A stretch of 64,000 nt of DNA from Membranipora membranacea (taxonomy: Eukaryota > Bryozoa > Gymnolaemata > Cheilostomatida > Membraniporidae): positions 3,288,001-3,352,000 of the forward strand of contig OU612072.1 of NCBI GenBank assembly GCA_914767715.1. Reading direction: 5' to 3'. The notes beneath the pieces are model-generated. The model was not told where the DNA came from and did not search any database. It worked only from the letters and a program-made list of their open reading frames with translations. Shown here piece after piece: positions 244 through 46,930 of the stretch. The translations under genes and the position numbers were made by a program. Every line of letters begins with the position of its first letter. Position 1 is the stretch's first letter.

Positions 244-331
244 CTTGATAGCGGGAAATGTTTTGTGTTCGTTTGTAGATGATTTGCCCAGTATAGAGCC
301 AGCAGTTCGGCCCTCACACTCATATCTGAAT
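244..331 (-). other. Alternative RHD recognition-loop exon B (Cys type)
   Basis: An 88-nt exon with acceptor ATTTCTAG and donor GTAGAG. It encodes [15 protein letters not shown] and ends TFPAIK, a near-textbook NF-kB recognition loop whose Arg, Tyr, Cys and Glu contact DNA in known Rel structures. It is a tandem duplicate of the exon at 614-701, separated from it by a 282-bp intron. Confidence 0.88.
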
Positions 332-1542
332 CTAGAAATCCATAAGGCAAAAACAATCATTATAACTCTGAGTAAAAAGACCCACAAGCCCCGCCCTCTG
401 TGACAGGGTACCACTGTCACATCAGGCGGAGAGCACCACTACAACAGCACCTGTCTACGAGTGTTGAGCTACACTGTGGAATAGTAGAGAGTAGTTTTGA
501 CAGTAATGTATGGATAGGTTAGTTGTTTGTATAGGTAGAGCTAGGCTAGCATACACTTAAAGACAGGTGCTACATGTATGTGGTGTTCTGATGCTTTGTA
601 AGCAGTCAGGTACCTTGATAGCGGGGTATGTTTGTCTCTCCTTGGTTGAGCCTGCCCCAGATAGAACACCACCTTGCTGGTTTTCTGATTCATAGCGGAA
701 TCTAAAAACACCCAATTGATCAGTACTTTAGTTGAGCTATGACAAGCTTGCAAGCAAAGCCAAAGCAGCGAAGCAGAAAGCGAAAACTATGACGGCAATT
801 CCGGTAGCTTGGAGAGCCGATTTTTATAGATTGATCATTCTCAACTAGAGCAGGATCTGTGTTCTAATTTTCATCAGTGGCAGCTGGGGAGGGAGGCTGT
901 ACCAAGGAGAGAGAAACTTTACCAATCACAATGTAGGTGACAGAGAGATAGATGTAAACAACACATGACTACACAAAGAGCCAACCAGAAGCCTTTACCC
1001 CTGTGTGAAGGTTTGTGACGAGCTTCACAGGGTAGAGGTTTGTGGTGTTGGTATGTTGAGTTGAGATGGGATGGTGGTGGTAGTACAATCAATAATCAAA
1101 GCCCATCACCACAAATTATTACATTATGAATGACATGTAAACCTCGGCCTAAAAACTTATAATGACAAACTGGAAAATTGCATGCTGGACTTATTAGAAT
1201 AATTAGGATAATGGTACATGGAGGATATGATTCTTTGCATTGAGGGGACAGTACTGACAATACACACAACACATTTCAAGTTCAACTATTCATGAGAATC
1301 CTTTAGTTCACTCAAACTGAGAGCGATGAAAATATATGTTATATTAAGGTCATAATGAAAGCACAAAAGGTCACCAAGCTGAACCGCTTCTGAAATAATC
1401 TTTTGTAGTCTGCAATGATCATCATAATTAAGACACCATTGACTTACCGTGTGGATTTTGAGCTGGGCTGTTCGATGATCTGGACATACGGTGCGTCTTT
1501 GGAATTGCTACTTGCCCCACGATGCTGAGGTGGTGCAGGCAT
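244..1542 (-). CDS. NF-kB/Rel transcription factor, N-terminal exons (partial)
   Basis: N-terminal part of a Rel-homology transcription factor, a nuclear sequence-specific activator. Exon 1 is 1542-1448: it starts MPAPPQHRG and ends with [15 protein letters not shown], the usual opening strand of the RHD. The CG at its end (phase 2) joins the A at the start of either of two alternative exons, 701-614 or 331-244, giving R-F-R-Y. Both alternatives end in P-A-I-K followed by a GTA donor (phase 0), as expected just before the next RHD strand. The rest of the gene lies beyond the left edge, so ankyrin repeats or a C-terminal domain cannot be judged. The ATG at 1542 follows an A-run; an upstream non-coding exon is possible. 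The family assignment is secure; the exact start is less so. Confidence 0.88.
614..701 (-). other. Alternative RHD recognition-loop exon A (Ser type)
   Basis: An 88-nt exon with acceptor TTTTTAG before it and donor GTACCT after it. Its reading gives [11 protein letters not shown] near the start and TYPAIK at the end. Compared with the canonical loop, Cys is replaced by Ser and the Gly after Glu by Asn, while Arg, Tyr and Glu remain. Length, phase and both borders match exon B at 244-331. The uninterrupted RHD-like reading argues that it is functional and not a decayed copy. Confidence 0.82.
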
Positions 1543-6877: not shown

Positions 6878-9800
6878 CTACAAATCGGGGTCTCCAATCA
6901 CCTCCAGAACCTGCAGCAACAAAATAATTTAGTATTATCGAAAGTGTTCTATCATTCTCCGACTTGAGGGTCAATCATTAGCGTCAAACATCAGTTATAT
7001 GCCTACAATCTACATTGATAACCTGTTTATGATCCCTTATATTTCAGATTTCAATTTTTCACTTGAAAATTTCGCCCTTTAACTCTCGAAAGAGAGACAC
7101 ACAGCTCCCGTATTGGAAATCAGTGTGATGCTCAATTTAACACAGCACTCTAATCAAGTGAGGGAGCCAGTGTGTACTAAAAAGGGACTGGTTTGTTGCA
7201 CTTGACTTAGCTATGACTTACTTGCTAGGCATGTTTGGCTGAGTTGACGCGACTTGACTCAATGTAATTTGTCACTTGATGCAACTTAGCTGAACCGAAA
7301 ATAGGCCCGACTTGAAATACTCTTATACTTACATCATCTAAGCTCAGGCTATCTAAGCCTGCAGACTGACTACTACCAGTCAGTTCTTGTCCACTGCTGT
7401 CCTGACTAAGCTGAGGAGACACAGCAGCTGCTGACCCGGGGTTACTGATGCTGCCAATACTCGGAGGATTCCTGTACTCACGTGGCTCTGACAGAGCTCT
7501 GTAAGGCAGGAGAGAATATATATTATGTACACAAATATTTAGAACAAATTGCTTATTTTGCCGATGTGTTGGCTATGATTGGCTATGGTCTCACCCAACC
7601 AAACCAATCATATCTCAGGCTCAGAACAGTTAAGTGTCGAGAAAATTCCAGAAAGTTTTTGAGCACAACGTGGCAGCTACTGAGTTATCTTTGTTTATCT
7701 GTCTGCAAACTATTCACACTAAGCCCCCCACCTGTTCACACCCATATTGGGGACAGCTGTAGAAGAAGCGGGTATCCTTATAGCTGGCCGCGGAGGTTGG
7801 TTGTTACTTTGTTGCTGTATTATCTGGTGTGATGTATAATCAGGTTGAGACATTCTCCTATGATCTGGAAGAGCTGCTGTGTACTGGTTCTGCTGGGCTC
7901 CTGTATACAGGCTCTGCTGAGGATATGGCGGAGGAGGTTGTTGATTTGACACTAGATAGGTTTGCTGCTGAGCAGCGGAGGAGAAGCCTGTACCATAATC
8001 ACCAGCCACAGTCATAGTGTCGCTGCCGCTGACCCAGTTATCACTGGTCGAGTGAGACGATGCTGTCGCAAACTGCTGATACTGCAGATTCATATTAGAA
8101 TTATTGTACCCATCCTGTGAAGACGGCTCCATTCCAACCCCTGTCATTTGCATTACTTGTGCCAATGGGTCTGGCTCTGATTGCATGGGGTATTCTCTAT
8201 AAGCTTCAGCTGCTAAAGCCAACACCTCTTGATAAGTCATATCCAAATCATTTAGATCTAGTGATCCATCTTGGACAGTAGATTGCTGCTGGTTTACTTT
8301 GGGAGTAAATTCTCCATTTGTCATTAAATTTGCCATCGGTGCTGACGCTATAGATTGTGCAGGGTTTATGTTAGGAGATTGGTTTACTAATGCGGTGACT
8401 GGTTGCTGATTTGCAGTGTTTCTCGGTGGAGCAGGTCTAATCGGTCTGTATTGAGTTTGAGGGGTTACAGGTTGACTCAGGGCTGATGATTGAGTGTTAG
8501 CAGTTAGAAACCTCTCAGCCATAGTCTGCCTTCTTTTTGCCTTAGCTATAGGTCTGGACTGAATACGCGTTACACTTTGATTCTGTTGGGCCGGTACAGA
8601 GGTCTGATGAGTTATCGGTGTGGTAGGAGTAGCAGTGTACTGATGAGAGGCCTGTGTCTGCTCAGGGAGGGCATGACTCCCTCCACTGCTCACAATATTA
8701 GAAGCCCCATCTGTATACTGTGACGGGAGAATGATGATTTGCTGCATACTGCCGGGTGCCGGAGGTGTAGCTGGTATGAGGACCACAGGGTCATCCTGAG
8801 GTTGTGACATGTCTACACTTTCAAGGTTTATATTTCCCTGAACAGGGTGACTCATATGTAGGTTAGCAACACCTGTCCCTTGAGCTATATAGATTTGTTG
8901 CTGTTGTTGTATATCCTCAGTATACATGGGTTGCTGATATACTGCAGGCTGTTGGACACCTGCAAGCTGATAATGTTGCTGTTGAAAAGGTGTATATTGG
9001 TTTGAAGCCCCTAAACTACCTGTAGTAGTTCTAGGTTGAGGTTTTGGGAACATTTCAGAGGAGTTACTCCTTAGAGGTGGCTACAAAATAAGACAAAGAA
9101 TTGTGAGTATCATGCGGCGCCGATATTGGATAGATAAAAAGGTAAAAGTATCCAAAGTTTGTATCAAGCCCACCATTATGAAGACGAGGGAATACATTAA
9201 GATGAGAAAAGAAAGCTGGATGTATGGATTTTCTCACAAAAAGTTAAAAATAAGTTTTTATATATACTTGAGAGGACAGGGAACAAATTGTTCATCATCA
9301 AATCAGATCATGATCATCCGATCGACTCAAATGAGATCAGTGTATGCAGCATTCTATGGTTGACTTACCGAATGTTCGCCTGATGACATCATATAACTGG
9401 GAGCATCATCTTCTGCTGGGGCTGGTGCCTCATCTTCTAAATAATATATGTTTCCAATAATAACTATCACACCTTTAACTCCGATCAATTCTGATCAAAT
9501 AAGCCTAAATTTCTGGATAATTGGCTGCGGCTCGGGGAGATTGAATTTGATCACACTTGACAATAATTTTAATTGTGCACTCAAAAACTACTTTGTGAAG
9601 ATAACATTGAGTTAATTTCAATAATTCAAATGTGTGACATTTGGGGCACAGGAGCGCCGGTAGTTGGATGTTCCTTCTCCGCACCACACCCTCTGGGAAT
9701 TGATCAGGGGACCTCCTGCATGAAAGACCAATGCCTTACCCATTGAGCTACGGTTGCGGCAAGGAACGGTTAGACACAAGGAACGGTTAGACACAAGGAA

Positions 9801-12800
9801 CGGTTAGACACAAGATTATTTTAAGTACCTGTATCAGAAGACGTGGCTGCCACAGGTTTGCTAACAGGGCCAGAGTAGAAGTTTTCCTCCGCTCGATAAC
9901 TTCGGCTGTGATGAGCTTCAGAAGGCTGGCTAGCCTGGTGTACATTAGGCTGAGGCTGCTGAGCAGCGCCCCTACTTTGCAAACTGGATGTACTGGTTGT
10001 ATTAAGTATGGATAGATCAGGAGCGGAGGTCTGATAATTTGATCTTGTGGATGGCTACAATGCACAAGACAGTAAGCGGTAACTGCACACATATAGTACC
10101 ACCACAAAAAAACCGATATGCTTTCCCCGCTGCCTAATTGTGGAATAACCTTAGCTGTGAATAGGCTACTGGATCGCATGAAACGGCGCTACTGAACCTG
10201 TTTTCACAAATTAAAATAAACTGTCTGTGAATAGGTAACCTGGCTATGCTGAGATTAAGCTCCACTTGTTTATCAGCACCTACTCAATTAATTGGCTTGG
10301 GCTTTACTACCCTATAGGAGTTTAGTTTTCGCGGCATTTAGGATTCGCTTTTCGCGTTGTTGCCTAAGTAGCGAAATTTAGTGTATCTTAGATTAAACTC
10401 ACTCACCATAGTTTCATAAACAATGTACAATTATACAGGAATACACCTTACCTACGCATGCAAGGTAGTGTGGTGTAGTCGGGTGTAGTGGTCTAAGTGT
10501 CTGCCTTGCAATCAGATGGAGAGTAATGCCCTGGGTTCGAATCCCAGCTTGGACATTTTTTTTTAATTTTCACTAGTAAGCCTACTAGCGAAAGGTCCAG
10601 GTCCAGATAGCGAAATTAAACTCTAGCTAAATTAAACTCCTATAGGGTATATTTGAGCTAGTATTAGCCTGGTCACGCGACCACCGGACAAGGCTAAGCT
10701 AGTATTACTAGTATATACTTACAGGATTCTGTGAGGGGTTTGAAAAATCACTCCATTGTGTTCCGTCTGAATTGTGACTATCGAGCACTGCAGGTACAGC
10801 ACCTACTGCAGAAGAAAACGCATTAAAGCTGACCAGAGCATCTCAACATTTAAATGAAATTGTATGGAGTCATGGACTCCCGGGAAATTAGAAGCAGGAT
10901 CCTGGGACAAAAAGTATGCAGGATTTCTATTTTATCTGTTATCAGTCAACCACAAAAAGATTTCCACTAGTATACTGGTACTGCTCTAATATATTACAGA
11001 TGCTAATCTATTATGATACAGATACTGATCCAGAATGATACTGATCCATTTCCATACTGATCCTTTACAACACTGATCTATTACAACAGTGATCCATCAC
11101 GATACTGATCAACCACGATACTGATCCATTATGATACTGATCGCTTGCAATACTGATACAATAAGATACTGATGGTTCTGTCAATATGATATACAAATGA
11201 AGTCCTGTAACCATAGACATCTTTGACACAGATGTGTACTATTTTCTTCTTCAGTTCCTACAAGTTTCACCGAACTTAGCAAATATATATTTATTTGGTT
11301 GGTGTCGAATCATGTTTGGCTACCTGATGTTGTCGCAGATGCAGCAGGTTTGTTGTCAGCTCTCATTTCCACTCCCCTGGGTCTTCTCACTCTTGCGACT
11401 GAAACCAAAATCAACATAGTATAGATAAAGATCTAAATTTTTGCAATGTGATCTATAGACTGTAATCATTATATCAAAAGTCAGAAGCAAAGAGTACATT
11501 CATTATCACCATGGTCCTATGCATAGATTTTAGGAGTTGTCAAATCATTGAAAGAGTATCGATTTAATTTCGATCGCATTCAGTTTGCGTTATCTCAGTC
11601 GCTTTACAATATCGAATTGTGTCAAACTGCTTGTCGGAGCTGGTATGGCTGAGCAGTTTGCATCAAAGACTGTGTGAGTTTAGGAAATCCCAGCACAATT
11701 TCCAACCGCAGCAGAACTTTTTGAGGTTCCAACACAATCAGCGAGGTCATTTGTATCATCGAAACCGTAAGTATTCAATTCAAATCGATTCATGGAAAAA
11801 TAATAATAATAATGAGTTTTTTTTGTATACCGCTTAATGTAAGCCACAATGGGTACTAAGCGAAGAACACTAGATCATTACCGCCCAGTCACTGGATCCA
11901 AGCACTCCATAGCCAACCCTGACTCATGAGAACCTACAGCGCTGGTACTCATTGGAACACCCTACTGAACTCGGCTTCTCAGGTAACACCATTGGACATG
12001 CTCGGGAATTGAATAGTGAATGTGAAGCTGATAATAAGTCTTGTTACCTGGTAGGTAAAAGAAATCCACAGGTTTAGATTTGTATTCTTTGCCTCCTCTT
12101 TTCAATACTAACTGAACAGATACCCGCCGATGATTCTCAGGAAAATTGTGTGGTTTATACTCTGGATAGACGAGCCTTATAGCGGAGGTCTCATGTATGT
12201 GCTTCTCAGTAGTGAAGCTCCCACGAGCTCTCCATTCCTGTCCATTGATTTCTCCAAAAAAATCAACTCTTGTTACCTCCTCTACAAAGTGTGAGAAAAA
12301 CAGGAGAGTTGCAATGGCGTCGCCAGAAGGAAAGCTGGTACTGATTATAAAACTGTACAAGGATAACAAACAAATTCTCTCCCAAATTTGAAAAAAACTT
12401 CACTCATGAGCAAAGGGAGGACTGGAAAAGCCCGCTGTAGTTTCTTGTGGTACCAGACCAGGAAAACTGGACAGACATAAAGACATCCATGTTTTCCCGA
12501 TCTGTTTGAAAAATGTTTCTTTGATTATCTATTTGAAGACTTGATATGATATCTTAATACTGACTCACCTTTCTTTGTGACCCCATTCATTAGTATTATC
12601 ATACGCCCTTTACCTGTGGCTAAACCTCGATTAGGCATAATATGCACTATGGCTAAATCTTCCCGCTCTAAAAAATATCATCCACGATGCAAATAGAATT
12701 TTTTTTAATATTTCCAAAATCCACAACACTGTCACATCAGCAGTGGGTATGAGGGTTCCAGGGACTGATGTGGTTAAAGTAAATGCTAACAATAAAATCT

Positions 12801-15674
12801 CGAAATGAGACAAATCTGAGTTCAAGGCTACTACTAACAAATCGGGTGTATGGCTCTCAGACCACTGTAAGCAGCAGTGCTGGATGGAGACCTGCAATCA
12901 AATCAAAGACTCAGCCATAGGTCAATCCTAGTTGTACCAACTGACTGCAACCGAGAGTATAATAATACTGACTAACATGACTTACTTTTAGAATTGACAA
13001 TAGGCTGAGATGTTACCGGAGTACAAAGAGGTCTGGAGGTTCCGTGATCATCCTTCACAATAAAAGTAAAACATATAGCCACCATCATAGGGTCTATCTC
13101 CTTCTGTTTGGTCTTCTCCTTATGATCAAATCCAGCTGAAAATTACAGTTACAGATACATAGCACTCATTGGCCTATATGGACACCATCAGCCAATCACA
13201 TTGCCCGCTCCAATTCTGGTTTCCTATCTCTTTTTGAATGTTTTTATGAGGTGACTAGACAAGGGGTCAAGTTAACTTGTCTATTACCGTAGTGCCTTGT
13301 AGATACATAATGTAGAACGCTAGTACACAGTGACTTACCTCTAAAGGGATCTAGACCCATATCTTTACGTATCTGAATCTCTTTGTCCCATTCGTCCTGC
13401 TTACTTTGTTCCAGGTTCACGTCATCCATTCTATAAATAGTCACATCACAGTTTTGGATCTATATGGGTTTTTTGTTGAAATCTTTGCATACCTAGTTTG
13501 TCTGCCTCATCGTATTCATAATACTGCCAGTGGAGAGATAGAATAAGCATCTCAAATAAATCTTACATTATTTGGTTGTTATTTTGGGTGATCGTAAACC
13601 TTTTTCTGTATGCCCCGCCCTCAGTGTTGGTACCCTCCAGTCTATGAGGGTGTACCTTAGGACTAACATTTGTCTGTTCAGGAGTCGTCACGAGGCAGGC
13701 CCACAATGTCCCTTCACCTTCATACCCATGTACCTGTAAATATGGATAAACCACTGAAAAGAAAAAACTATGCCTCTGACAGGATTACCTGTGAATATAT
13801 CACACTGCCATTCGCGTAGTTAGATGAGTTCTTTACCTTCATTGACACCCACAATCAAATATTTTACCTTGATTCTGCCAGTTACCAATTTGTTTGCTGG
13901 AGAACTGAAGGCCTCTATAATCTAATTAAGGTTTTGTGATTCATCTGTTAAACAAACAAACAACAAACAAACGTATATTGTAAGCACAAGGCATTGGTTT
14001 GTCTCTTTCAATTTGTGTAGACCCTTTGATATGCAGTTTCAAAACTTAGCTAGTCAGTAATCTTACTCTGTGCGTACACCAGCTTAGCTCCAATATATGA
14101 TCTTTTTTGTTGCTATCCAGGCTATATTCATCCCACAGGATAGGGGCCAATGATTAATTTAAATGACACAAAAAAATTTCCATACATGTTTATATTGAAG
14201 CGGAAGTCGTTATCTACCCCTATAAAGCCCTTGATTTTACAATCCTCCCTTTCATATACATGTGTTATCTTTCTCCTGTTTTCCCCTCCCCTTTTCTCCT
14301 CTGCATTCTCCTTTTTTCCCATCAGTTATCCTAATTCTCTGATACTGATACAGTATTGGAAATTTCCTACTAAAATTATTTTGTATGGCAAAAGAAAAGT
14401 ATACTACAATCTGAATGCCACCCATTCTAGTGTGTCTTGGAAAACTGTCCAAGAATATGGTTAGGTGCAGAAGTTTGAGCAATTTTATACTAGCATGAGT
14501 ATACATACAGGCCTGTATCTCAGGCATGTTTAGTGATAGGCCAATATCTGATTTTCTGTCGTACACATTTTCACCACTTGATTACTATTTGTTTGCAAAC
14601 AGGTCGTAGCAACCTGGGAGCAAACCAAAGCCCAGTAGTGGGCAGTAGTCCTTCTATCCGCCTTCCTATATAACTCTGGATAGTGATGTAGATCAATCCA
14701 TTTAACTTGAGGGCCTAACATGCCGCATTCATCATACATTCACCATTAGTATACTAATGATTTGTGAAACATAATCAGTAATATAACACCATACTGTAGT
14801 GTACTACTAGAGTCATATTGAGACTGCAAAAATATTGTCTAGCTGCCCGGGGTACTGACTCTCCTATTATATACACCAGAGCTATAGGGATTAGGGACTT
14901 CATTGTATTCCTATTGTACCAGGCATTCATATTTTGTTTGACGATTTCACAAATTTGGCACATTACCTTTAGAGTAGGCCAGGATTTACCACCATCTTGG
15001 CCTCTAATTTTAGCATTAGCGTTATCTGTACGATATCGATACCTGAAATATAGTGAATGAATAGCCATTAGACAGTGCTGATTGTAAATTTCATATGCGT
15101 ATAGGCCTTGCCTTTACCAAAGCTTCATCAACTCCCAAACAATTTAAGGCCATGTGACAAGGCTAGTGCTCCTTAATATAAGACCGTAGTGTACTTTAGT
15201 ACAGTCCCATTGGGAGGTGAGGGAGCCCTGGCTTACCTGAGCTGTTCTACTGGCTGATTTACAATCTCAAGATAACTACCAGCATGTAAGGCCCTGGGCA
15301 TCTTTGAGAAAATACTCCGGCCAGCACAAAAGGCTGCTTCTAAAATATAAAGAAAATCTCTAATAGTATTGTATAACCACTCTGACGTGCCCCTCTGTCA
15401 CCGCATATTCTTCAAACAAAACCTGGAAAAAAAGAGAGGTAAATGCATAGAACTGCACTGTGGGATCTTGAGTCATCTGCTGGCTGATGATTTAGAGCAG
15501 GCAACCTTGTTACTGCAAGCCTATCCAGGAGGCTCATTGGGAATTAAGTGCTCAATTGTGAACTCATGACATTGACATGTGTTGTTCTATCATAGCAATA
15601 TAAAGGGAACGTGAACACACACCAAGAAGGGTTGGAGGGAGTGGAGCTTGTGGTCGAAAAATATTCCACCCTTC
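6878..15674 (-). CDS. Divergent Rel-homology transcription factor with Q-rich C terminus
   Basis: A second Rel/NF-kB-like nuclear factor. Exons in order: 15674-15623, 15339-15237, 15042-14967, 13733-13567, 13430-13339, 13135-12986, 12667-12569, 12281-12048, 11398-11324, 10805-10723, 10054-9829, 9436-9369, 9080-7732, 7498-7333, 6910-6878; every junction keeps frame to the TAG at 6878. From the Met at 15301 the product is 960 residues. RHD-N spans about 9-183 (SYLEIVNQPVEQL, then loop RYRYRTDN; WACLVTT; HPHRLEG; SQPIVNSK). The IPT/dimerisation domain is about 187-293 (RVDFFGEINGQEW, VYPEYKPHNFPENHR, VSVQLVLKRGG). A basic stretch RVRRPRG follows, an expected NLS site. Residues 350-950 are rich in Q, S, P and T, like a transactivation region. 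No ankyrin repeats are seen. The recognition loop lacks the usual Cys-Glu-Gly. The 5' end is open: the 15674 exon has a good acceptor, so a further upstream exon is likely. Confidence 0.85.
9655..9760 (-). repeat. tRNA-like SINE fragment
   Basis: On the minus strand GTAGCTCAATGGGTAAGGC resembles a D arm with an A box, and GATCAATTCCC, about 35 bp on, resembles a decayed B box. It lies in an intron of the Q-rich Rel gene. Confidence 0.45.
9761..9811. repeat. 17-bp tandem repeat, three copies
   Basis: AAGGAACGGTTAGACAC is repeated three times without change, directly next to the SINE fragment and 17 bp from the exon ending at 9829. Confidence 0.9.
10308..10649. mobile_element. MITE with TA ends, carrying a tRNA-like insert
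   Basis: TACCCTATAGGAGTTTAG at the left is matched by inverted AAACTCCTATAGGGTA at the right, 342 bp apart. Both ends carry TA, as expected for a Tc1/mariner-type non-autonomous element. Near the ends, GTTTAGTTTTCGC and GCGAAATTAAAC also mirror each other. There is no coding capacity. Confidence 0.65.
10480..10556 (+). repeat. tRNA-like (pol III) sequence inside the MITE
   Basis: GTAGTGGTCTAAGTG (A-box-like), TCTGCCTTGCAATCAGA (anticodon-like arm, one mismatch), a long variable region, then CTGGGTTCGAATCCCAG (perfect T stem and B box), followed by a T run that could end pol III transcription. The acceptor stem pairs poorly (GTCGGGT against CTTGGAC), so a pseudogene or SINE head is more likely than a working tRNA. 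Confidence 0.55.
10656..10706. mobile_element. 31-bp micro-element with 10-bp target duplication
   Basis: AGCTAGTATT occurs at 10656-10665 and again at 10697-10706. Between them is a 31-bp segment that starts AGCCTGGTCACGCG and ends GACAAGGCTA. The segment ends resemble those of the element at 33313-33364. Confidence 0.6.
10990..11175. repeat. Degenerate ATACTGATC minisatellite
   Basis: The motif ATACTGATCCATTA and close variants recur about nine times at roughly 15-20 bp spacing in an intron of the Q-rich Rel gene. Confidence 0.75.
14575..14660 (-). repeat. Fragment of the SINE body also seen at 4500-4735
   Basis: TTTGCAAACAGGTCGTAGCAACCTGGGAGCAAACCAA.. followed by CCCAGTAG aligns with TTTGCAGGCAGGTCGGAGCACACC.. 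and CCCCAGTAG in the first copy. The tRNA-like head is missing. Confidence 0.55.
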
Positions 15675-45339: not shown

Positions 45340-46930
45340 TTAAGATGAGGCGGTAGGAGGTAGACCCCATGTAGGATCCTGTGATCTCATCATCTGTATA
45401 AAGGAGACCTTCTTATGTAGAGTGCTACTAATCTCTGGCTGACTCTTAGTTAGGGCCTCTCTTATACTCACAATCGGTACTTTTCTCCCCTTGTCATGTA
45501 ACTTTCTGCAAAGTAATATAAATCTTAGCATCATATCATTACAAAGCAGTTTCACTTTAAGCAAGGTAAAATTTGCAGTAATGTTTGAGGCTATATTGAG
45601 GTTGAACACAAACAGCAAAGTTCAATATATAAAAAAGATTCACAAAAAAAGAGATTTCTAAACAAATATGACATGATATTATAAAGCTGAAACTAACTTG
45701 TACTGTTTCTCCCACATGTATTTCTGTGCCACCTGGCCTGAGGCTATCCTGCATATATCAGATAACCAGCCATTGACTAAGCTCTCCAGTCGGACTGCGG
45801 GTCTCTCTGGGGACAAATCTCTCTGTAGGGGATGTTGCTGTTTGTATCTACTAGCTACAGCATCCATCTCCTCGACCATCTTCTGCTGATCGTGATAGGT
45901 GCTCAGACGTAGCCCTAGGTCTGAGATTGCGCTCATCAGTTCCCTTACGAGGAGGGAGCCCCTCTGAGCTCCCTTTCTCCACACATAGCTCACCTGGCCG
46001 GCAGCACAGGGGTATAAGATCAGCGTGTCAGCAGATCTGGGTATATAATCCTCTAGTTTTAGCTCGGGAGCTTCTCCGGCATTTAGACTATCGCTGGCCA
46101 GCACATCATTCTCTTCCTGTCCTCGACAAGTCTGCAAGATAAAGATTTTAGGAATGCCTTTGTAGATCTCCTGGATGGGCTCGATCAGATGAGTCGCAAC
46201 ATTTCTCCAACATTCTTTCTCCTCCGTCTTCTCTTTATGTGAGAGCATAAAGTCCCCATTCGCTTCACCATGTGACATCAAGAAAAACATGACAAAGGAT
46301 GGGTGGTTACTGTCTTTGTACCCTCGTACAGCCTTCATAAACGATTCCAGACTGGTGTTGCGGAACATATTCTTCGGGGTCAGGTCTGACGGTTGACTGG
46401 GGATGTTCTCACTCTGTAGATTTTCTCCTATATAGACATTTTCTTTCGGGTCTTGATCGTCATTCAAAAGGTTAAAGGTCTCTGCAATACACTTTTGGTC
46501 CCACTTGTAGTTAAGGCCTTCTGATCCCTTTTCTATTTCAAAAAGAAATTCGTCGTTTCTGATGATGGCAAATAAACCGCTTCCGGATATGTCATAGTCT
46601 TCTTCTTGACTGACACTGACGTAGAAGTCTCTGAAACCCTGTTCTATTTCTGTCAAAGATTCATCTTTGAACTCCTGATCTACTCGGAACATACTACAAA
46701 ATGTAATGAGGAGAATTTTAATGGACCCCTCATTGGTTATTGTTTAGCTCGACTTCAAATCTCAAAAGAAGGCTCAGATATGTTTCTTTGCTTCCTTGGT
46801 GAAAACTAAAATCTGAACACCTTAACTATCATTGTAAAGAGCAGAATGAGTAAATCTTATCGATGTAATAATAAGTAACTTACTCCCTAGGTCTCATGGC
46901 TGGTACTGGTGTTAAGTTCTGACCAGACAT
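45340..46930 (-). CDS. Caspase (short prodomain, QTCRG active site)
   Basis: Cysteine protease cleaving after Asp, for apoptosis or related signalling. Exons: 46930-46884, 46693-45698, 45505-45340; 402 residues in frame. The p20 part has LFAIIRNDEF, the catalytic His at about 157 in FFLMSHGEANG, and the catalytic Cys at about 205 in KIFILQTCRGQEEN. The usual pentapeptide is QACRG; Thr replaces Ala. A linker with Asp residues at about 212 and 217 could be the maturation site. The p10 part has SADTLILYPCAAGQVSY and AQRGSLLVRELM, with the RGS of the substrate pocket; the C terminus has QPEISSTLHKKVSF, the final strand. Only about 45 residues precede the catalytic domain, so no CARD or DED is visible and it resembles an effector caspase. 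It lies opposite in strand to, and beyond, the last bark exon. Confidence 0.93.

What the first reader, a model, noticed from the sequence alone, without database searches (positions are those of the whole stretch)
244..701. Mutually exclusive exons for the NF-kB DNA recognition loop
Two 88-nt exons in tandem (701-614 and 331-244) have the same phase and matching borders, and both encode an RHD loop ending P-A-I-K. Exon 1 ends in phase 2 and each alternative needs that phase. If A is spliced to B, B is read ATT CAG ATA TGA and stops at its fourth codon. So only one can be used per transcript. I know of no described NF-kB gene that exchanges its DNA-contacting loop by splicing.
Basis: partly seen in the sequence, partly recalled or inferred. 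Interest (0 to 1): 0.93.

Follow-up and report, generated by a model that had tools for sequence, protein, structure and literature searches.

The report
Swappable DNA-contact exons in bryozoan Rel
A sea-mat (bryozoan) immune-type transcription factor gene carries two alternative versions, side by side, of the small exon that encodes its DNA-gripping loop, and the reading frame works only if exactly one of them is used, so splicing probably changes how the protein binds DNA; no RNA evidence could be checked here.

Summary
On the minus strand two 88-nt exons, A (701-614) and B (331-244), share phase, length and borders. Each alone joins exon 1 (1542-1448) to ten predicted downstream exons left of the window and gives one open 556-aa protein with Rel homology DNA-binding and dimerisation domains. 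A+B, or neither, runs into a stop. The genome matches Membranipora membranacea (Bryozoa), chromosome 8. The gene is a Rel-type (class II) NF-kB factor without ankyrin repeats. B encodes the canonical loop RFRYECEG. A encodes a derived loop RFRYESEN: it keeps the core Arg, Arg, Tyr and Glu, but has Ser at the redox Cys, Gln at the p65 Arg41 position, and p50/p52-type residues at 5 of 14 differences. A is unlikely to be a long-dead copy (0 of 200,000 simulations if all 37 changes were neutral); recent loss is not excluded. Both donors lack the +5 G of the 10 other donors. A 27-nt intron/exon hairpin encloses A's acceptor. No transcript or relative could be examined, so use and exclusivity are inferred. 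The kind is known (FOXP1 exons 18/18b; Nematostella Cys/Ser alleles); I found no report of it for a Rel loop.

The parts
1448..1542 (-). Exon 1 coding part (ATG to donor, 95 nt, ends in phase 2): [31 protein letters not shown] + 2 bases of R
   Evidence: PYVQIIEQP aligns with p65, p50, RelB and Gambif1
614..701 (-). Alternative exon A, 88 nt, phase 2 to phase 0: (R)[29 protein letters not shown]; donor AAG|GTACCT
244..331 (-). Alternative exon B, 88 nt, phase 2 to phase 0: (R)[29 protein letters not shown] (canonical Rel loop); donor AAG|GTAGAG
332..613 (-). Intron between A and B, 282 nt, long enough to be spliced (introns after E3 are 182-529 nt)
702..1447 (-). Intron 1 (746 nt to A); with the 1593-nt intron after B the longest of the model
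889..917 (-). Upstream arm of an RNA hairpin (CU-rich), complementary to the inside of exon A
   Evidence: one match in the genome for the 93 bases around it
630..658 (-). Downstream arm of the hairpin, inside exon A; the stem encloses A's 3' splice site (702/701)

Best explanation
Shown from sequence: this is the 5' part of a Rel-class gene of Membranipora membranacea, modelled with 13 exons of which 12 go into one transcript. The exon for loop L1 of the DNA-binding domain is present in two diverged copies that fit the same slot, and of the four combinations only a transcript with exactly one copy encodes a Rel protein. Inferred: both are used as mutually exclusive exons. B gives an ordinary Rel loop (Cys at the redox position, Arg at the p65 Arg41 position). 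A gives a variant that keeps the core contact residues (Arg, Arg, Tyr, Glu) but replaces Cys by Ser and Arg41 by Gln, so the A isoform should bind kappa-B-like sites with different flank preference or affinity and be less sensitive to thiol oxidation. Exclusivity is enforced at least by frame (A+B or neither is truncated and should be degraded). Choice probably rests on the two weak donors and on a hairpin between intron 1 and exon A that encloses A's acceptor; B would be the default while the hairpin is closed.
For: One open 556-aa frame with A or B alone, stops with both or neither. RHD and dimerisation domain in both versions. Exon 1 and B align with known RHD proteins; B and downstream exons match the RHD profile. 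If all 37 A/B differences were neutral, identity >=15/29 has P 8e-4, BLOSUM >=79 has P 3.5e-5, and both together with no stop and an intact FRY..E core occur 0 of 200,000 times. NG86 dN 0.48, dS 1.54. The flanks of A and B show no similarity beyond 9-base words, so the duplication is not recent, yet length, frame and splice sites are intact. +5 G present in the 10 other donors of the model and absent in both A and B, B's donor scoring below A's. A matches class I residues at 5 of 14 A/B differences and class II at 0; neutral P 0.0018. Hairpin: fold z -3.43, 0 of 100 shuffles as good; pairing score 45.5 against a maximum of 35 in 100 shuffles; 8 of 1500 random window segments reach it, and the 12 other exons reach at most 30 upstream and 32 downstream.
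Against: No transcript evidence for A, B or any junction; exon borders were chosen by hand, and those after the RHD rest on splice motifs alone. The neutral test depends on how many changes fell on A's branch: with 30, 24, 18, 12 and 9 neutral changes the joint probability is 0.0002, 0.006, 0.047, 0.15 and 0.24, so recent loss of A is not excluded. Given 15/29 identity, the changed residues are only marginally conservative (P 0.055). A lacks Cys6, Gly8 and Lys24, invariant in the six PDB loops compared. The genome-wide RHD search picked up B but not A. The hairpin arm codes for about [10 protein letters not shown], so part of A's p50-like look could come from RNA pairing. Eight of 1500 background segments pair as strongly.
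Confidence: 0.66

Rival explanations
1. Exon A is a relic: a duplicated exon that was once used, or never regulated, and is now spliced rarely or not at all; only B matters.
For: A is the derived copy at most differences (B matches class II residues at 10 of 14, A at 0) and lacks Cys6, Gly8 and Lys24. With 12 or 9 neutral changes on A's branch the intact frame is unremarkable (joint P 0.15 and 0.24). No RNA evidence.
Against: No stop, no indel against B, both splice dinucleotides present, core FRY..E kept; a long-dead A is rejected (0 of 200,000). A's donor scores better than B's. Class I residues at 5 of 14 sites (P 0.0018).
Confidence: 0.2
2. A serves as an expression switch: A included together with B gives a frameshift and nonsense-mediated decay, so A lowers Rel output rather than making a second protein.
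For: A+B stops at the fourth codon of B. The 282-nt A-B intron is within the gene's range, so A+B splicing is not blocked by length.
Against: A poison exon has no reason to keep a Rel loop in frame with exact borders and a conserved core. A alone restores the whole protein.
Confidence: 0.09
3. Assembly artefact: two alleles or haplotypes of one exon placed in tandem.
For: Presumably a diploid animal; haplotypic duplication was removed by software (PMC10290214, passages).
Against: A and B are only 58% identical (51 of 88) and their flanks show no similarity beyond the exon ends, far beyond allelic divergence.
Confidence: 0.01

Closest known systems
FOXP1 mutually exclusive exons 18 / 18b (FOXP1 vs FOXP1-ES)
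   Same: One transcription factor gene exchanges an exon of its DNA-binding domain, keeps the frame, and changes critical residues and the preferred motif (PMC11701043, passages).
   Different: Forkhead, not Rel homology domain; human and mouse; shown by RNA and protein-binding arrays, whereas here only the gene anatomy is known.
Nematostella vectensis NF-kB Cys/Ser alleles (residue 67, recognition loop position 6)
   Same: Cys versus Ser at the same loop position, with measured differences in DNA binding, activation and thiol sensitivity (PMC2751831, passages).
   Different: There two alleles of one locus segregate between animals; here both versions lie in one gene and differ at 14 of 29 residues; a Rel-type gene, not the Nematostella NF-kB.
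Drosophila Dorsal A / Dorsal B isoforms
   Same: Alternative splicing of a Rel-class gene (PMC4500392, passages and abstract start).
   Different: Dorsal B arises by intron retention and the RHD is common to both isoforms; the recognition loop is not exchanged.
Rel-class (class II) NF-kB proteins: p65, c-Rel, RelB, Dorsal/Gambif1
   Same: Exon B loop 24 of 30 identical to RelB, 20 of 30 to p65; RHD plus dimerisation domain, no ankyrin repeats.
   Different: A second loop exon with Ser at the Cys position.

Membership tests
Rel/NF-kB family, Rel class (class II) | Rel homology DNA-binding and dimerisation domains | tested here: met
   PF00554 (A 1.1e-52, B 2.7e-59) and PF16179 (3.8e-14), both above the curated cut-offs
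Rel/NF-kB family, Rel class (class II) | Recognition loop RFRYxCEG | tested here: inconclusive
   Exon B RFRYECEG meets it; exon A RFRYESEN fails at Cys and Gly
Rel/NF-kB family, Rel class (class II) | No C-terminal ankyrin repeats (unlike p100/p105/Relish) | tested here: met
   No ankyrin-like motif in C8:3268001-3292000 by a simple pattern scan and no ankyrin family in the 556-aa model; the same scan finds three in the C1 RHD locus
Mutually exclusive exons by tandem exon duplication | Adjacent homologous exons of equal phase between shared flanking exons | tested here: met
   (A against B E 1.4e-7)
Mutually exclusive exons by tandem exon duplication | Both or neither breaks the frame | tested here: met
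   88 nt, not a multiple of 3; stops in both cases
Mutually exclusive exons by tandem exon duplication | Transcripts contain one or the other | not testable with these tools
   No reads at hand; public RNA-seq ERR6464929 exists
RNA-structure-controlled exon choice | Stem near an alternative splice site, conserved with compensatory changes | tested here: inconclusive
   Strong stem in this genome; conservation not testable without relatives
Class I (p50/p52) recognition loop for exon A | Class I residues, including His at the p50 His67 position | tested here: not met
   5 of 14 differing sites match class I, but position 11 is Gly, not His, and positions 6 and 8 match neither class

The most novel reading that the evidence does not exclude
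A Rel protein whose DNA-contacting loop is chosen by splicing between a redox-sensitive Rel loop and a Ser-bearing, p50-like loop, under control of an intron-exon RNA hairpin. The neighbouring tandem Rel paralogue in the same window carries a single loop with features like A's (Thr at 6, Asp at 7, Asn at 8, against Ser, Glu, Asn in A), so the loop variation may be older than the gene duplication and form a bryozoan-specific diversification of NF-kB targets.
Probability: 0.3. Interest if true: 0.85.

Novelty: new variant of a known kind. Interest (0 to 1): 0.68.

Why it matters
The L1 loop is the most constrained part of NF-kB, and its Cys is a redox control point (PMC2751831, passages). A natural gene that makes both Cys and Ser forms, with an altered base-contact position, from one locus would let one animal tune kappa-B site choice and oxidation sensitivity by splicing, and would make the question of what that Cys is for testable inside one genome. 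It would extend the FOXP1 principle to the Rel family and to a phylum for which one library search gave no NF-kB paper (4 of 4 off the subject by title and abstract start).

Tried and rejected
Sponge origin: my first guess; rejected when C18 proved to be a 14,741-base mtDNA read by the invertebrate code and contig sizes matched Membranipora. Strict class swap (A = p50-type): rejected, A is 16/30 to p52, 15/30 to RelB and 14/30 to p50 and has no His67 equivalent. Alternative first exon for A: exon 1's peptide has no second copy in the region; a TATA-like stretch in intron 1 seen by eye would, by my reading, give no RHD frame. A third loop exon in the studied gene: the loop search of 84 kb of C8 and a motif screen of 1447-1 show only A and B, but the loop search also missed the paralogue's diverged loop, so it is not exhaustive. 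Hairpin as a genome repeat: one match for its 93-base surroundings (counts there are lower bounds). A B-like second loop exon in the paralogue: none seen. Pairing of the hairpin arm with intron 3 (-33.2): weaker, not tested against shuffles. Duplex search over whole introns timed out with no output.

Limits: the search for homologous proteins was off; genome contigs and viral contigs gave no relative, and they hold prokaryote and viral DNA; the tblastn against phages gave 6 records with E of 2 or more, that is nothing; the genome search for the exon A peptide did not complete. Structure prediction was not asked for, since spliced proteins are not letter-for-letter in the DNA. Paper searches saw capped listings and abstract starts. 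I saw passages of PMC13042239 (and its section 6), PMC2751831, PMC11701043, PMC10290214, PMC4500392 and PMC7734590, and no paper whole.

Full report
What was checked. On the minus strand exon 1 (ATG at 1542, donor after 1448, 95 nt) ends two bases into a codon. Exon A (701-614) and exon B (331-244) are each 88 nt: one base to finish that codon, then 29 codons, so each hands over in phase 0.

The whole gene. The window is G000:C8:3288001-3352000, and the gene runs on to the left. I fetched 20 kb to the left and built a model by hand from homology and splice sites (a first version had exon 1 one base short and was mended): E1, A, B and E3 to E12, 13 exons, 12 per transcript, the last ending at C8:3281904 with a stop. 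With A or with B alone, one frame is open for 556 aa. Pfam finds RHD_DNA_bind over its full 169 positions and RHD_dimer in both; there is a Q-rich tail and no ankyrin repeat by a pattern scan of 24 kb or by Pfam. It is therefore a Rel-type (class II) gene. A second RHD gene on C1 has a p50-like loop (RFRYEVEGKAHGG, Val at the Cys position), a glycine-rich stretch and three ankyrin-like motifs about 10 kb on, so it is probably the p100/p105-like partner. Borders after the RHD rest on splice motifs only.

Organism. C18 is a 14,741-base mtDNA with the invertebrate code. The lengths of C1, C2, C8, C9, C10 and C11 (41.07, 39.53, 27.17, 25.74, 24.42, 23.37 Mb) match the chromosome table of Membranipora membranacea tzMemMemb1.1 (PMC10290214, passages). 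Chromosome 8 is OU612072.1. The identification is an inference from sizes, but a close one.

What the two loops encode. [31 protein letters not shown], 24 of 30 identical to RelB and 20 of 30 to p65. [32 protein letters not shown] keeps R-F-R-Y and the Glu. It differs from B at 14 of 29 residues: at these B matches the four class II loops 10 times and A never, while A matches p50/p52 residues 5 times (L14, A17, K21, R23, Y26); neutral change gives 5 or more in 0.18% of 6000 trials. A has Ser at the Cys site (Cys38 of p65, Cys62 of p50), Gln at Arg41, Gly at Ala43. [quoted passage not shown] the wider list of base contacts (Arg33, Arg35, Tyr36, Glu39) is recalled. [quoted passage not shown]

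Is A alive? A and B share 51 of 88 nt; differences by codon position are 10, 11 and 16 of 29. Placing 37 random changes on B gives 15 or more identical residues in 0.08%, a BLOSUM sum of 79 or more in 0.0035%, and both with no stop and the core FRY..E in 0 of 200,000. If only 30, 24, 18, 12 or 9 neutral changes fell on A's branch the joint figures are 0.02%, 0.6%, 4.7%, 15% and 24% (50,000 trials each). A is the derived copy at most sites, which puts most changes on its branch, but recent loss cannot be excluded. Given the number of changed residues, their conservative nature is only marginal (P 0.055). NG86 gives dN 0.48 and dS 1.54, LWL85 much the same; the ML dS (20) is saturated and YN00 gave nothing. 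The 200-base flanks of A and B share no more than 9-base words (the 118-base match there is the shared A-B intron itself), so the duplication is old or the flanks turned over fast.

Splicing signals. The 10 other donors of the model have G at +5; A (GTACCT) and B (GTAGAG) do not. Leave-one-out donor scores: A 4.3, B 0.25, others 5.3 to 12.0. Since I placed the borders by hand, with an eye to good donors, this contrast is firmest for the RHD exons, where homology fixes the borders. The introns flanking the pair (746 and 1593 nt) are longer than all others (182 to 529). The A-B intron (282 nt) is long enough to be spliced, so exclusivity is not steric by length alone. Intron 1 bases 917-889 pair with exon A bases 658-630 (27 nt, 85%; duplex -34.1 kcal/mol). 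The 316-nt stretch folds with z -3.43, 0 of 100 shuffles as good; the pairing score of 45.5 exceeds 100 of 100 dinucleotide shuffles (maximum 35) and 1492 of 1500 random window segments, so against real background it is about a 1 in 200 event. The 12 other exons reach at most 30 upstream and 32 downstream. The stem encloses A's acceptor, not its donor. The 93 bases around the upstream arm match one place in the genome. That the stem regulates A is an inference.

Mechanism proposed. Default splicing joins exon 1 to B. When the hairpin is opened, or a protein occupies its CU-rich arm, A's acceptor becomes usable and the A isoform is made. Mixed or skipped products are frameshifted. Shown: anatomy, frame logic, protein conservation, the presence of the pairing. 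Inferred: use, regulation, biochemical difference.

Relatives. The protein database was off; genome contigs (18 pattern matches, none confirmed) and viral contigs (no match) gave nothing, as expected for an animal gene. Within the genome, loop searches in 84 kb of C8 and 29 kb of C1 find A, B and the C1 loop at E 0.003 or better. Genome-wide, PF00554 finds four pieces from two genes, not A, and PF16179 four places. A tandem Rel paralogue, missed by both loop search and PF00554, lies upstream in the window (about 15290 to 7720, minus); its exons were recognised by eye next to the RHD_dimer match. Its one loop exon, 15042-14967, has the same phases: RYRYRTDNANAKIRGQDGGKSWPTLK. Like A, and unlike B, it has a hydroxyl residue at 6 and Asn at 8; the loops are too short and diverged for a tree.

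Literature. Searches for a Rel or NF-kB gene with mutually exclusive loop exons gave none in what was listed: 20 of 14,272 papers, 12 of 72, 9 of 9, 15 of 104, 25 of 206 ('mutually exclusive exon' occurs in none of the 25). They were judged by titles and abstract starts. The 2026 review of NF-kB in holozoans has no 'splic', 'exon' or 'isoform' in its main text as held (PMC13042239). One search gave 4 papers for Bryozoa with NF-kB and Rel, none on a bryozoan gene by title and abstract start. This library lacks most subscription journals.

Verdict. Observation confirmed; interpretation supported but unproven at RNA level; a new variant of a known kind.

Noticed in passing
window 7720-15290, minus strand: A second Rel-like gene head-to-tail upstream: exon-1-like AGSYLEIVNQPVEQL(R) (ends 15237), loop exon 15042-14967 (76 nt, RYRYRTDNANAKIRGQDGGKSWPTLK, Thr at the Cys position), E3- to E6-like frames at 13.8-12.5 kb recognised by eye, RHD_dimer at 12303-12049 (PF16179 1.6e-6), perhaps a Q-rich tail (453-aa open frame 9080-7722; no Pfam match).
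   Followed up: partly
G000:C1:13276905-13288200 (L009, L010, L031): Probable p100/p105-like NF-kB gene with loop RFRYEVEGKAHGGLQG (Val at the redox Cys position, loop 5 residues longer), a glycine-rich stretch and three ankyrin-like motifs.
   Followed up: partly
G000:C1:19063044-19063220 (L032): A fourth RHD_dimer match; its frame looks NFAT-like to me, from memory.
   Followed up: no
window 45682-46743, minus strand: Open frame with a caspase domain (PF00656, 3.2e-15) and the motif QTCRG.
   Followed up: no
window 446-464 and 553-571: A further 19-nt inverted repeat (84%) inside the A-B intron.
   Followed up: no
C8 about 3282300-3282560 (left of the window), after exon 11: Short repeats of the type GGTAACATAACCACACCCAC in the last intron of the gene.
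   Followed up: no
G000:C17 (L013): A 10.3-kb contig with very long open frames that seem to occur twice in tandem, perhaps a mobile element.
   Followed up: no
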